A stretch of 37,700 nt of DNA, from assembly GCA_027014125.1 (NCBI GenBank), contig JALWEI010000018.1:1-37700 (forward strand), in the 5' to 3' direction. Each line of letters begins with the position of its first letter. Positions within the stretch are counted from its first letter, which is position 1. Made by a program: the position numbers and the translations under genes. Of the stretch, positions 13,775 to 31,678 are shown piece by piece. The notes under the pieces were generated by a model that worked only from the letters and a program-made list of their open reading frames with translations, had not been told where the DNA came from and ran no database searches. The stretch is from Acidilobaceae archaeon. GTDB taxonomy: Archaea; Thermoproteota; Thermoprotei_A; Sulfolobales; Acidilobaceae.

Positions 13775-14961
13775 CTCCTCAGGTCCACCTCGCTACTATA
13801 CGAGACGGGCACCCCTTGGATGCGTAGCCCACGGGCTACTAGTAGGCGGAGGGCCTTAGATATGCCCCGGGCCCTACGGTCGCTGGCCCTGATAGTCACG
13901 GGCTCCAGGCCGCCCCGGGCTATGCTATCAAGGGCTACAACGTGGTGTGGCTCCAGCCCGCGGGCCCTGAGCAACTCCAGGCTCCCCCTGCTATACTCCA
14001 GCCTGTACACCCTCGACGCCCTAGGGCTGTTCTGCCACCTACCCGGGGGGACTACCAGGTACTCCACGACCTTCTCCAGGGCCCCAGGCACGCTAGGCTC
14101 AACCAAGACTCTGGGTGTCACCAGGAGCCTGCCCGGGGAGCGGGTGGAGCACCTCGACTCCTGTAGCATGTGTATAAGCGCCCTATCCCCCTGCCCCTGC
14201 ACACCGGTACAGTCCTCAACCATCTCCCGCAGGCCCGGGGTCGTGGATAGGATCCTGCTCCTCTCAACCCTCTTCACAACCCCTACCACGGGGACCCCGA
14301 GGTCCTCGAGCCTGGCAACAGCTGAGGACCTAGCCCTAGAGAGGCTCCTCCACCCCTCCTCCTGCACCCTCCACAGGGCAGGGGTCAGGGGCCCGTCCAG
14401 TAGGGCCACCGCCCCGGGTAGGAGCCCCTCCTCCACCGCTACCGGAAGGACCTCGCCCAACACCCAGTTCTCCAGCGCCACCCTCCACTCATCCATAACG
14501 GCTTCCACACTATACCCAGGCCCATAGGGCCAACCCCCAGGCCCCCTACCGGTTAGGGGGTACCCGTAGTCGCCCCCGGGCACCACCGCTATGAACGGAG
14601 GCCCCCCGCCGGGGGATACCGGGTACCCGTAGACCTCCGGGTAGTCGTAGAGCTCCACTATGCTCCGGGAGGAGGCGGAGGCCACGGTTATTACTATAGA
14701 GTGGCTGGGGGTCTCCAGGAGCCTGCTGCTACTATCAACACCGACAACCTCAACCCTCGGCCTCCTACGGGGCAGGGGGAGGCGCTGGAGGAGGGGCCTG
14801 GAGCTGTGCTCGAATAGGCGGGACCTGAAGAGGCCCACATCCTCCACGCTATACCCCGAGAGGAGGTCCTCCAGTGTGAGTGCATCTCCGTGGCCCTGGA
14901 CCGTGTGGGGCCTGACCCTAGCTATCTCGCCCAGTAGCGACGGTAGATCCCTAAGCCTCAT
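13771..14961 (-). CDS. nurA: NurA nuclease
   Basis: 5'-3' DNA exo/endonuclease that works with HerA in end resection. RNase H-like core begins at VEVVGVDSSSR with the metal-binding Asp at D76; further candidate acidic residues are in VALLDGPLTPALW and VVALDSIARGG. The NurA family is low in sequence conservation, so the overlapping herA gene is strong support. 396 aa is longer than typical NurA (about 300-340). ATG 14961 lies about 17 nt after a predicted transcription start from the TATA at 15002-15010, so the mRNA has nearly no leader. The promoter is shared with the divergent prepilin peptidase gene. Confidence 0.82.
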   Translation of the reverse strand: MRLRDLPSLLGEIARVRPHTVQGHGDALTLEDLLSGYSVEDVGLFRSRLFEHSSRPLLQRLPLPRRRPRVEVVGVDSSSRLLETPSHSIVITVASASSRSIVELYDYPEVYGYPVSPGGGPPFIAVVPGGDYGYPLTGRGPGGWPYGPGYSVEAVMDEWRVALENWVLGEVLPVAVEEGLLPGAVALLDGPLTPALWRVQEEGWRSLSRARSSAVARLEDLGVPVVGVVKRVERSRILSTTPGLREMVEDCTGVQGQGDRALIHMLQESRCSTRSPGRLLVTPRVLVEPSVPGALEKVVEYLVVPPGRWQNSPRASRVYRLEYSRGSLELLRARGLEPHHVVALDSIARGGLEPVTIRASDRRARGISKALRLLVARGLRIQGVPVSYSSEVDLRS

Positions 14962-15001
14962 CCCAGCCCCAGGCCCCTAATACATGGGGGCGTATATGCA
15001 T

Positions 15002-15010
15002 CTATAAGTA
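15002..15010. promoter_or_regulatory. Bidirectional TATA between nurA and prepilin peptidase
   Basis: CTATAAGTA on plus reads TACTTATAG on minus. The 85-nt gap between ATG 14961 (minus) and TTG 15047 (plus) holds one good TATA patch. Spacing gives about 17-nt leaders in both directions, so one patch could serve both genes. Confidence 0.5.
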
Positions 15011-15046
15011 GCTACCCGGGGGGCCTTGCCACCTGGGGCCCGGGGT

Positions 15047-15709
15047 TTGGACTACCTCCCAGCCGTGGTGGCGGTCGTAGTGATGGGCGTGGCAGGGATA
15101 CTCGACCTGCTCTACAGGGAGATCGAGCCCCTATACTGGTTCTACGCCACCCTCCTGGGGGGCCTAGCCTACCTCAAGACCCACGGGGGCCTGCTAGGCC
15201 AGGCGGAGCCCATCCTGCTAGGCCTAGCCCTAGCCCCCGCCCTGGTCATGGCTGGACTCTACGCCGCCGGCCTCATGGGCGGGGCTGACGTCTTGGCCAT
15301 GGTATTCCTCTCCCTAGCCTACCCCCTGGCCCCGGGGAGCCTGCTCCCCGTGCCGGTCCTGGCAATACTATATGCTAGCCCCCTCAGCGTGGCCCACAGG
15401 ATATGGATGTTGTGTAGGGTCGTCAGGGGGCCCCGGTGCCTGGTCTCGGGGAGGATCAGGGTACCAGGCTACAGGCTGCTATCCGACCCGAGGCTCAGGT
15501 GGTGGCTGGTCTCGGACAAGAGGGCCGGGGGCCTGGATGTGGGTGGGGAGACGTGGGAGATCGTGGCCAAGCTGGGCCCCAGGGAGCCGGTCGAGGCCAC
15601 CCCCGGCCTCCCATATGTCACCCACCTGGCAGCTGGGACCATACTAGCGGTGATCCTGGGCGACGACCCGGTGCTAGGACTCGTAGAGCTGCTGGCAGGC
15701 AGGGGGTGA
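15047..15709 (+). CDS. Type IV prepilin peptidase (PibD/FlaK-like)
   Basis: Membrane aspartic protease that cuts class III signal peptides of archaellins and pilins. Two Asp regions are visible: GILDLLYREI early in the protein and GGADVLAMVF in the middle; the GGAD form replaces bacterial GXGD and is typical of crenarchaeal PibD. Four to six hydrophobic segments surround them (VVAVVVMGVAGIL, ILLGLALAPALVMAGLYAAG, and others). The C-terminal about 70 residues form a soluble part ending in a last hydrophobic segment. I chose TTG 15047 over TTG 15026 because the TATA at 15003 predicts a start near 15030. A GGGGTGA site at its end serves the next gene, 6 nt away. Confidence 0.8.
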   Translation: MDYLPAVVAVVVMGVAGILDLLYREIEPLYWFYATLLGGLAYLKTHGGLLGQAEPILLGLALAPALVMAGLYAAGLMGGADVLAMVFLSLAYPLAPGSLLPVPVLAILYASPLSVAHRIWMLCRVVRGPRCLVSGRIRVPGYRLLSDPRLRWWLVSDKRAGGLDVGGETWEIVAKLGPREPVEATPGLPYVTHLAAGTILAVILGDDPVLGLVELLAGRG

Positions 15710-15715
15710 CACGCC

Positions 15716-16141
15716 ATGGACCCGGGAGAGGCGAGGAGGATCCTAGAGGAGATCCTAGGAGACGCGTCCAAGGTCCCAGTCGTGAGGCTACCCATGAGGG
15801 GTAGGAGAGTGGACAGGCTGATAGCAAGGCTAGAGCCCTACAGGGCCCAGGGGCTAGTTGCATGGATACTATGCACCCAACTAGGCTGCAACGCCTGCAT
15901 ATCACGGGAACCATACAAGGTGGAGAGGGGCCTCACCACGGTGTACGACAGGCTGAGCGGACTAAGGCACCCCATACCCTGGGCCCGCGGGGTGACAGGG
16001 AGCGGGGAGGCCTGGAGGCTGGAGTGGAGGGGGGACATCTACGAGGTAGCATGGACAGGGTGCGGAGCCAAGCTGGGGAGCAAGGTGGAGTGTATAGACC
16101 AGGAGGTGTGCAGGGGTTGGGCTCCAAGCTCGAGAGGATGA
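15716..16141 (+). CDS. Hypothetical Cys-rich protein
   Basis: 141 aa, not recognised. ATG 15716 follows a good GGGGTGA ribosome site 6 nt upstream. The first 50 residues are charged and helical (EARRILEEILGDASKV). The middle holds CTQLGCNAC, and the C-terminal third has CGAKLGSKVEC and a last Cys in QEVCRGW. Six cysteines in pairs could bind a metal or cluster, or form disulfides. No signal peptide or membrane helix is seen. It lies between the prepilin peptidase and the phosphoribosyltransferase regulator, and its 3' end overlaps the start of the latter by 25 nt, so the three genes are likely one operon. Confidence 0.6.
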   Translation: MDPGEARRILEEILGDASKVPVVRLPMRGRRVDRLIARLEPYRAQGLVAWILCTQLGCNACISREPYKVERGLTTVYDRLSGLRHPIPWARGVTGSGEAWRLEWRGDIYEVAWTGCGAKLGSKVECIDQEVCRGWAPSSRG

Positions 16142-29112: not shown

Positions 29113-29122
29113 GCATATATAC
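29113..29122. promoter_or_regulatory. Bidirectional TATA between DUF432-mscS and RNA ligase
   Basis: GCATATATAC includes a TATATA palindrome that reads as a TATA box in both directions. Predicted starts near 29142 (plus) and 29092 (minus). The plus leader contains a 6-bp hairpin GCCCGG/CCGGGC (29130-29135 and 29144-29149) and the GGAGG site for the ligase. Confidence 0.55.
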
Positions 29123-29170
29123 CGTGCACGCCCGGCAGCCCCTCCGGGCTTCAAAGGAGGCCCGTGAGGG

Positions 29171-30367
29171 TTGAACCAGCAGCGGCTAGTCGAGGTCCTG
29201 GGCAGCTGTAGCAGGGTTAGGGAGGCAAGGGTTAGGTGCGCCTCCTACCCGTGGGCAAGGTACTGCGTCTACACGTACAAGACTGCTGACTGGAGGGTAT
29301 TCAGGGAGAAGCCCTGCCTCCTCTACTCCCGGGGCACAGTCGTCGTAGAGGATAGGAGCGGTGGGATCCACGTGTACCTCCCCTTCACGAAGTTCTTCAA
29401 CGCTGGGGAGACCGATTACACGCTCTACAACAGGCTATCCAAGCTCCAGGTTGGGAGCGTCTATGAGAAGCTAGACGGGACCCTGGTGGTAGTATGGCGC
29501 GACCCCGTCACCGGGGAGCTGAGGGCGAATACGAGGGGCTCCCTATGGAGCCACCCCGGGGGCAGGGGAAACCCGGACCCTAGGGCTAGGGTCGTGAACC
29601 CCTTCGTCAGGGGCCTCATGAGGTACATCGAGGAGAACGAGCTCAGGAGGAGCCTTGAGAGTATCATTGATGAAAAGTGGACGGTGATGCTAGAGCTGGT
29701 GGCCCCCGGTATGGCGGCCAGCAGAGCCCACCACGACCCCGAGGAGTACATGGAGGCGATCCAGGGACGTGGTGTGGCCTACCTACTAGCCTATAGGGGC
29801 AGGGATGGCAGTCTCGAAGAGCCTGGCGAGAGCGAGTGGCCCCACCAGCCCTCCAGGCTTAGCGTGCCACGTTCGCCGGAGGAGCTAGGGGGCGTGGTGG
29901 AGGGCCTGGGTATAGAGGGTGTAGTTGCCTGGTACAGGGAGAGCCCCTACCAGGGCCCCCTGGAGGGCATAGATCCCCTGGTCAAGTTCAAGTCGAGGAG
30001 CTACCTATTCAGGGTCACGGGGCTCCAGTCCAGGAGGTCTATACTAGCATACACCCTACAGGGCGGCGTGGACGACCTAGCCGGAGTGGTGGAGCCGGGG
30101 GAGCTTGAAGTCCTAAGGAGGATCCATGCCGAGTACCAGCGCCTCCTCCAGGGGATAGAGGAGCTGAGGCGGAGGAGGGATGAGCTTAGGAGGAGGGGGA
30201 TCAACGTTAGGGGCCTCATAGCACGGGGCATAGAGAGCCCGGATAGGCTGCACGGCGAGGTGGTTTCAAGGTCGCCGAGGGACTACTGGAAGGCGCTCAG
30301 ATTCCTGGAGAGGCTCAACAGGACCCTGGAGAGGATACTAGAGAAGCTGGAGGGCCAGCCCGCCTAG
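29171..30367 (+). CDS. T4 Rnl1-type RNA ligase
   Basis: ATP-dependent RNA ligase of the nucleotidyltransferase superfamily; joins 5'-phosphate and 3'-hydroxyl RNA ends through a covalent Lys-AMP. Motif I is KLDG at 100-103 (K100 the adenylated Lys) inside VYEKLDGTLVVVW. PFTKFFNAGETDYT, just before, matches the KFFNxxE block of T4 RNA ligase 1; RGSLWSHP and VMLELVAPG (near 172-180) match motif III-like blocks; EGVV (249-252) is motif IV and VKFKSRS (271-277) motif V. The C-terminal about 110 residues are helical and Arg-rich (RLLQGIEELRRRRDELRRRG), as expected of an RNA-specificity domain. TTG 29171 has GGAGG 10 nt before it. A T-tract (30384-30389) follows the stop. Archaea usually seal tRNA with RtcB, so this is an extra activity. 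Confidence 0.88.
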   Translation: MNQQRLVEVLGSCSRVREARVRCASYPWARYCVYTYKTADWRVFREKPCLLYSRGTVVVEDRSGGIHVYLPFTKFFNAGETDYTLYNRLSKLQVGSVYEKLDGTLVVVWRDPVTGELRANTRGSLWSHPGGRGNPDPRARVVNPFVRGLMRYIEENELRRSLESIIDEKWTVMLELVAPGMAASRAHHDPEEYMEAIQGRGVAYLLAYRGRDGSLEEPGESEWPHQPSRLSVPRSPEELGGVVEGLGIEGVVAWYRESPYQGPLEGIDPLVKFKSRSYLFRVTGLQSRRSILAYTLQGGVDDLAGVVEPGELEVLRRIHAEYQRLLQGIEELRRRRDELRRRGINVRGLIARGIESPDRLHGEVVSRSPRDYWKALRFLERLNRTLERILEKLEGQPA

Positions 30368-30438
30368 GCGCCCATTATAAGGTTTTTTAAGATGACAATG
30401 CACGCTGGTGGATGGTGCTCTAGGGCAGGGGATAAATA
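30368..30438 (+). promoter_or_regulatory. Terminator-like T-run and promoter region
   Basis: The 71-nt gap after the RNA ligase stop has a six-T run at 30384-30389, a common archaeal termination signal. GATAAATAG at 30431-30439 looks like a TATA box; it would give a transcript starting near 30460, so the PhoU-like gene might begin at GTG 30463 without leader. Confidence 0.45.
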
Positions 30439-31122
30439 GTGTACGCCGGGAGCAGTATAAGCGTGGCAGCGATAGTGGAGCACCTACTCAACATGGCCAG
30501 GGACCTGGAGGACCTGGCGCACCTGGCCTGGAAGCTGTCGAGCCAGAACCCGGAGGTCGAGGTCCTAGAGAAGGCCTACAGGCAGGAGGTGGTTACTAGG
30601 AAGGACAAGATAGAGGAGATGAAGTCGAGGCTATTCGAGTACATGGCCTCAGGCAGGATAGAGGTGGTCGAGCACAGCGGCTTCTACCTGACCATCGCAA
30701 TATCCCTCGAGAGGGCCGCCCAGAGCCTAGATGCGGCGGTATACAGGATGCTCCTATTCACAAGCATAGCCAAGGAGCAGGGAGGAGAGCCGCTAGCCCA
30801 GGTATCGGGGCTATTCTCCAGCATGAGGGAGGCGCTAAGCCACCTATCCTCAGCCTTAAGGGTAGTGCAGAACATGAGCGGGGCCAACAGGGACCAGTAC
30901 AAGCTACTGGACCAGAGGGTGTCGAGGGTTAAGGTGGCGGAGGAGGATGCGGATAAGCTGTACAGGAGGGTGATAGCCTATGCACTGGAGAAGTACAGGG
31001 GCGACTGTAGCCTGCTAGTAGCCCTGAAGGACCTGGCGGATAGCGCAGAGAATGCGATGGACCATATAGCAGAGGCCGGGGACTACGTTAGGGCGCTGGG
31101 AGTGGCGATATACTCGAGGTGA
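30439..31122 (+). CDS. PhoU-like / DUF47 family protein
   Basis: 227 aa helical protein of the DUF47/PhoU-divergent group, which usually accompanies Pit phosphate permeases and binds metals. It is entirely helical: [37 protein letters not shown] and the C-terminal signature [22 protein letters not shown] (acidic residues for metal clusters). No Pit transporter is near. GTG 30439 is the first start; GTG 30463 is possible. The gene leads into endA with a perfect ribosome site covering its own stop, so these two are co-transcribed; a role in phosphate regulation is not evident from the neighbourhood. Confidence 0.75.
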
Positions 31123-31126
31123 AGCC

Positions 31127-31678
31127 TTGAGCCAGGCAAAGTACAGGGGCCTCCTCCTCGGCGACTCGATAGTAGTCCCAGACATCGAGGAGTCCCGCAG
31201 CCTATACAGCCAGGGCTTCTACGGGAAGCCCATAGGCGTGGAGAAGCCACGGGGGAGGGACTTCGACGCCCCCCTAAAGCTGAGCCTAATGGAGGCCCTC
31301 TACCTGGTAGAGAAGGGGATGCTGGAGGTATACAAGCCCGACGGCTCCCCGGTGGGGGTGGGGGAGCTGAGGAGCATCCTAGAGCGTCACCCACGCTTCA
31401 GGCTGCTCTACAGGGTCTACGTGGACCTCAGGGACAGGGGCCTAGTAGTGAGGCCCGGGCTCAAGTTCGGCGCTGACTTCACAGTGTACAGGATCGGGCC
31501 AGGCATAGATCACGCCCCCTTCATAGTAAACGTTGTGGGCTTGGACGAGGAGATAGACCCGATAGAGATAGTCAGGGCAGGGAGGCTAAGCCACACGGTG
31601 AGGAAGACATTCACCATAGCATCACCCCTCCCCGGCGGCAGGGTCCAGTACATCATGTTCAAGTGGTACAAGCCCTAG
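31127..31678 (+). CDS. endA: tRNA-splicing endonuclease catalytic subunit
   Basis: 183 aa, cuts introns from tRNA and other RNA at bulge-helix-bulge motifs, leaving 2',3'-cyclic phosphate and 5'-hydroxyl. The catalytic triad is Y121 (TVYRIGPG), H129 (GIDHAPF) and K160 (VRKTF), in the usual order. [18 protein letters not shown] precedes it. Crenarchaeal enzymes are heterotetramers, so a structural partner is expected elsewhere. TTG 31127 follows GAGGTGA (31116-31122), a perfect ribosome site overlapping the PhoU-like stop. The T4-type RNA ligase two genes upstream is suggestive, though the end chemistry differs. Confidence 0.93.

What the first reader, a model, noticed from the sequence alone, without database searches (positions are those of the whole stretch)
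29171..31678. T4 Rnl1-type RNA ligase close to tRNA-splicing endonuclease
The sequence shows an Rnl1-like ligase (K100-LDG, KFFNAGE block, EGVV, VKFKSRS) two genes upstream of endA, on the same strand. The known archaeal tRNA exon ligase is RtcB, which uses 2',3'-cyclic phosphate and 5'-OH ends; an Rnl1 ligase needs 5'-phosphate and 3'-OH. So an RNA healing step would be needed, or the ligase serves another RNA, such as repair or intron circularisation. The neighbourhood could mean an alternative splicing or repair route in this lineage.
Basis: partly seen in the sequence, partly recalled or inferred. Interest (0 to 1): 0.65.

Follow-up and report, generated by a model that had tools for sequence, protein, structure and literature searches.

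The report
Archaeal T4-Rnl1-type RNA ligase, not splicing-linked
This heat-loving archaeon carries an intact relative of the phage T4 RNA-repair ligase, but its place next to the tRNA-splicing gene is a local rearrangement seen in only two close relatives, so it is better read as a patchily kept RNA-sealing enzyme than as a new tRNA-splicing route.

Summary
The gene is real. Window 29171-30367 (+) encodes a 398-aa protein of the T4 Rnl1 family with its nucleotidyltransferase motifs intact; endA lies two genes downstream (31127-31678). The inferred link to tRNA splicing does not hold. In 20 relatives' endA loci plus G002, the recurring unit is [coiled-coil gene]-endA-[124-aa gene]; the ligase is beside it only in the window genome and one congener, G002 (82% identity). 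A third congener, G003, has both flanking blocks apart, with other genes in the ligase's place. The other family ligases (37-44% identity) sit in unrelated neighbourhoods. Ligase and endA unit each have their own TATA-like box. The genome also has RtcB and a separate PF09414 (Rnl3-type) ligase. Best reading: an accessory, chromosomal, ATP-dependent 5'-P/3'-OH single-strand RNA ligase of old archaeal lineage, probably repairing broken structured RNAs. A side finding may be more unusual: a sister family (24 sequences aligned, six archaeal families) resembles the Rnl1 catalytic domain but has lost the catalytic residues, the AMP-accepting Lys always being Arg.

The parts
29171..30367 (+). Rnl1-family ATP-dependent RNA ligase (398 aa)
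29468..29479 (+). motif I KLDG, nucleophile Lys = K100
   Evidence: codons 100-103 of the ORF; invariant K, D, G
29693..29695 (+). motif III Glu E175 (LELVAP)
   Evidence: invariant
29915..29926 (+). motif IV EGVV (E249-V252)
   Evidence: E, G invariant
29984..29992 (+). motif V KFK (K272, K274)
   Evidence: invariant
30029..30364 (+). C-terminal all-helical domain (about residues 287-398)
   Evidence: model (pLDDT about 65-88 here); sequence match to Rnl1 profiles ends near residue 331
29121..29129 (+). TATA-like box (about CATATATAC) between DUF432 gene and ligase, conserved in G002
30377..30393 (+). TATA-like stretch (about TTATAAGGTTTTTTAAG) between ligase and next gene; own promoter of the endA unit (inferred)
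   Evidence: conserved in G002; TTATATAG at a similar place in G003, which has no ligase there
30439..31122 (+). helical/coiled-coil protein of unknown family, next to endA in 13 of 20 relatives' loci
31127..31678 (+). tRNA-splicing endonuclease subunit EndA
   Evidence: PF01974/PF02778
28316..29116 (-). DUF432 protein; with the MscS gene forms a block found apart from endA in other genomes

Best explanation
The gene encodes a stand-alone, catalytically competent Rnl1-type RNA ligase: K100 takes AMP from ATP, passes it to a 5'-phosphate RNA end and seals that to a 3'-OH, on single-stranded RNA or loops (chemistry inferred from intact motifs and family). It most likely mends endonuclease-broken structured RNA (tRNA or rRNA loops), with the helical C-terminal domain helping to select substrate (inferred). 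It is an accessory chromosomal gene of old archaeal lineage, kept in some lineages and missing in most, and is not part of the tRNA-splicing pathway. It sits near endA because a rearrangement joined the MscS-DUF432 block, the ligase and the coiled-coil/endA block in the ancestor of two species (different arrangement in relatives shown; direction of events inferred).
For: Catalytic motifs intact and invariant; T4 Rnl1 closest by profile and fold. Different neighbourhoods in other genera of the family and in other archaeal families; G003 has both flanks without the ligase. Separate TATA-like boxes. RtcB and a PF09414 ligase present in the same genome. Found in only 5 of 48 family genomes sampled (window-type hits). 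Tree: the family ligases form one clade (100/97), apart from a clade (100/99) that holds all viral sequences sampled; G+C of the gene matches its surroundings.
Against: No substrate evidence at all. Sequence match to Rnl1 profiles fades in the C-terminal domain, so tRNA preference cannot be carried over from T4. The AF2 model is only moderate (mean pLDDT 63.5). G003 is 76% complete, so absence of the ligase from its whole genome is not proved (absence at both flanks is). No T4-type 3' phosphatase was found, so breaks with 2',3'-cyclic phosphate ends might not be usable.
Confidence: 0.72

Rival explanations
1. The ligase works with EndA and a kinase (Clp1 type) in a second, healing-and-sealing tRNA splicing or intron-circularising route.
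For: Two genes from endA on the same strand in two species; Clp1-family kinase in the genome.
Against: Adjacency absent in G003 and in all other loci read; RtcB present; no Pnkp-type 3' phosphatase found; Clp1-type kinases also occur in control archaea such as M. jannaschii and S. acidocaldarius, so their presence says little; a TATA-like box of its own before the endA unit.
Confidence: 0.07
2. Counter-toxin or counter-defence tRNA repair: the ligase reseals tRNAs cut by PIN-domain or other anticodon nucleases, as T4 Rnl1 does. This is a narrower form of the best explanation.
For: T4 Rnl1 rejoins tRNA halves after Pnkp healing (PMC3400036); in one other archaeal genus (G517/G518) the ligase gene lies convergent to a PIN-domain gene (PF01850 E=4.8e-4, just under the cut-off), 16 bp apart in L166.
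Against: No toxin gene beside it in the window or in the other family genomes; VapC products are reported as 5'-OH in mycobacteria (PMC6459853), which would need healing; the association is from a single genus.
Confidence: 0.3
3. A recently acquired viral gene parked in the chromosome.
For: Rnl1s are typical of tailed phages; distribution is patchy.
Against: Viral homologues are only 17-23% identical and lie in a separate clade; the five family ligases form one clade although found in three genera; the genes around it are ordinary chromosomal ones conserved in relatives; G+C matches.
Confidence: 0.08

Closest known systems
T4 RNA ligase 1 (Rnl1/RnlA; PDB 2c5u, 5tt6; PF09511)
   Same: Nucleotidyltransferase motifs, KFFN block, domain order NTase then helical C-terminal domain; top fold match.
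   Different: About 16% identity in the fold alignment; far under the TIGR02308 cut-off (20.4 vs 242.25 bits); C-terminal domain diverged; chromosomal in a hyperthermophile lineage; no Pnkp-type partner found.
Archaeal Rnl3 (Pab1020 / MthRnl / TkoRnl; PF09414)
   Same: ATP-dependent archaeal ssRNA ligase; weaker fold match 5d1o, 2vug.
   Different: Different family; a separate PF09414 gene is already in this genome. In T. kodakarensis the Rnl3 makes C/D box sRNA circles (PMC9014305).
Fungal tRNA ligase Trl1, adenylyltransferase domain
   Same: Same superfamily; next best fold and sequence match.
   Different: No kinase/cyclic-phosphodiesterase domains here, and archaea use RtcB for splicing.

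Membership tests
Rnl1 family (PF09511 / PHROG 562) | significant profile match | tested here: met
   PHROG 562 1.8e-21; PF09511 27.9 vs cut-off 28.3, 28.7 over the cut-off: borderline by Pfam, clear by PHROG and by family profile
Rnl1 family (PF09511 / PHROG 562) | motif I KxDG, motif III Glu, motif IV EG, motif V KxK all present | tested here: met
Rnl1 family (PF09511 / PHROG 562) | T4 Rnl1-like fold with helical C-terminal domain | tested here: inconclusive
   T4 Rnl1 is the top match, E 9.3e-10, but TM 0.53 on a model of mean pLDDT 63.5
Rnl1 family (PF09511 / PHROG 562) | adenylation and sealing of 5'-P/3'-OH RNA | not testable with these tools
   needs enzyme assay
T4 RnlA equivalog (TIGR02308) | score over curated cut-off 242.25 | tested here: not met
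   20.4 bits: not a T4 RnlA equivalog
Splicing-linked ligase | conserved neighbourhood with endA | tested here: not met
   adjacency in G000 and G002 only
Splicing-linked ligase | RtcB missing, or a full set of healing enzymes present | tested here: not met
   RtcB present; Clp1 kinase present; HAD_PNKP phosphatase not found; other phosphatase types not searched

The most novel reading that the evidence does not exclude
Two sister families of Rnl1-type proteins are chromosomal in this archaeal order: a rarer active ligase (the window's) and a commoner, uniformly inactive-looking one (Lys to Arg in motif I; motif III, IV and V residues lost). The inactive one would be an RNA-end or broken-tRNA sensor or binder made from a ligase, and the active one a matching repair enzyme, giving archaea a home-grown RNA-damage sensing and repair layer besides RtcB and Rnl3.
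Probability: 0.12. Interest if true: 0.75.

Novelty: new member of a known kind. Interest (0 to 1): 0.38.

Why it matters
The review of archaeal RNA ligases read here describes archaeal ATP-dependent ligases of the P. abyssi/MthRnl type only (PMC4606414), and the T4-Rnl1-type enzymes characterised from thermophiles come from moderately thermophilic phages with optima up to 75 C (PMC10423840). An intact Rnl1 from a hyperthermophile lineage could be a useful enzyme and raises the question of what a third RNA ligase does in a cell that has RtcB and Rnl3. The work also removes a tempting but unsupported inference of an alternative splicing route.

Tried and rejected
Operon with endA: rejected on neighbourhood and promoter evidence. 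DNA ligase or capping enzyme: rejected by profile and fold order. Recent viral origin: no close viral, phage or plasmid relative. Sequence-only PDB search with the single protein found nothing useful. THUMP identity of the gene downstream of the ligase in G040/G050/G470, suspected by eye, was not confirmed (only a weak match to 1rki). VapC toxins as a source of ready-to-seal ends: undecided, since one paper reports 5'-OH products (PMC6459853). Defence-system models: no match.

Full report
What is there. The ORF at 29171-30367 (+) encodes 398 residues. Against viral Rnl1s, K74, K100, D102, G103, E175, E249, G250, K272 and K274 are invariant. By profile it is Rnl1: PF09511 at 27.9 bits, just under the 28.3 cut-off (28.7 in the genome search), and PHROG 562 at 1.8e-21. 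A profile of it and relatives finds T4 Rnl1 at 3e-30. A moderate AlphaFold2 model (mean pLDDT 63.5) has T4 Rnl1 structures as its top three PDB matches, then fungal tRNA ligases, then archaeal Rnl3. It is not a T4 RnlA equivalog by NCBI's cut-off. EndA is confirmed at 31127-31678.

Neighbourhood. endA was located in 40 of 48 genomes of the same family; 20 of those loci were read with flanks of several kb where contigs allowed, plus G002. The recurring unit is a helical protein (window 30439-31122) directly before endA (13 of 20 loci) and a 124-aa gene after it, often followed by UbiX-like and macro-domain genes. The ligase lies beside it only in the window genome and G002, whose proteins are 82-99% identical across the region. 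In G003, a third species of the same genus, the MscS-DUF432 pair and the helical-protein/endA pair lie on different contigs, each with other genes where the ligase would be (L121 and L058). The ligase's own relatives lie elsewhere: next to an enoyl-CoA hydratase gene in G380 and G429, next to a DUF123 gene in G032, and in other settings in G040, G050 and G470. An EndA profile finds endA in none of these loci. Upstream sequences show a TATA-like box before the ligase and another between the ligase and the endA unit, both conserved in G002; G003, without the ligase there, has a TATA-like box at a similar place before the endA unit. So the ligase and endA are probably separate transcription units brought together by rearrangement.

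Pathway context. The genome has RtcB (599 bits), a PF09414 archaeal ligase and a Clp1-type polynucleotide kinase, but no T4-Pnkp-type 3' phosphatase by PF25109. RtcB joins the 2',3'-cyclic-P/5'-OH ends that EndA makes, so splicing needs nothing from this ligase (established knowledge; PMC3400036). In T. kodakarensis the Rnl3-type ligase makes C/D box sRNA circles (PMC9014305), a job likely covered here by the PF09414 gene (inference). What remains for an Rnl1 is sealing of 5'-P/3'-OH breaks in single-stranded or loop RNA (inference).

Distribution and descent. PF09511 hits occur in 8 of 398 genomes of the phylum sample. Intact ligases of the window's type occur in 5 of 48 family genomes (G000, G002, G032, G380, G429). 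More distant ones with intact motifs, where read, occur in genus g19 (hits in five genomes, three read) and genus g202 (two genomes). In a maximum-likelihood tree the five family ligases form a clade (100/97), and the viral sequences sampled fall in another (100/99) that also holds two sequences from archaeal assemblies. The viral homologues are 17-23% identical. This fits an old archaeal gene lost often, though old transfers cannot be excluded.

A stranger sister family. The same searches turned up proteins of about 435 residues in six families of the order: 29 genomes with hits at E<1e-90 among 214, 24 sequences aligned. Profile comparison to the ligase alignment gives 96% probability over about 205 columns, and each family's profile finds the other. 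In every one of the 24, the motif I Lys is Arg (RxDG), the motif III Glu is gone, the motif IV EG is RS, PS or PA, and the first motif V Lys is Glu. They form one clade (100/100), the four scanned have no Pfam match, and no consistent neighbour was seen. A literature search for an archaeal RNA-ligase pseudoenzyme returned nothing (one narrow query). Uniform loss with good conservation points to a retained non-catalytic role; what it is remains unknown. The window genome lacks it.

Verdict. Observation confirmed; interpretation half right. It is an intact, uncharacterised archaeal Rnl1-type ligase. The endA association is local to two species and carries little functional weight.

Noticed in passing
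L131:6878-8173(-), L134:6280-7551(-), L149:6058-7371(+), L152:6685-7971(-), L157:5610-6977(+) and about 19 others: Conserved family of about 435-aa Rnl1-like proteins in six archaeal families with the catalytic residues lost: motif I Lys always Arg, motif IV EG to RS/PS/PA, first motif V Lys to Glu. No Pfam match in the four scanned. Looks like a ligase-derived pseudoenzyme.
   Followed up: partly
L019:10127-10510(+), L020:8005-8373(-), L165:3311-3685(-): In genus g19 the ligase is followed at once by a conserved gene of about 123-128 aa of unknown family (51-54% identical; weak match to structure 1rki), a likely two-gene unit.
   Followed up: partly
L166:1636-3421 and L167:3791-5646: In genus g202 the Rnl1-type ligase lies convergent to a PIN-domain toxin-like gene; in L167 the PIN gene is shortened and a small antitoxin-like gene lies nearby.
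   Followed up: no
window 30439-31122 and relatives: A helical protein of no known Pfam family is the true conserved neighbour of endA in this archaeal family (13 of 20 loci); its stop lies 4 bp before endA in the window.
   Followed up: partly
L124:5976-7439(+) and 14556-15722(-): In the window's own genome RtcB and the PF09414 (Rnl3-type) RNA ligase lie about 7 kb apart on one contig.
   Followed up: no
L135:1339-1551(+), L132:2098-2388(+): A ribbon-helix-helix antitoxin-like gene (PF01402 9e-12 in L135) lies beside the ligase-like pseudoenzyme gene in two genomes.
   Followed up: no
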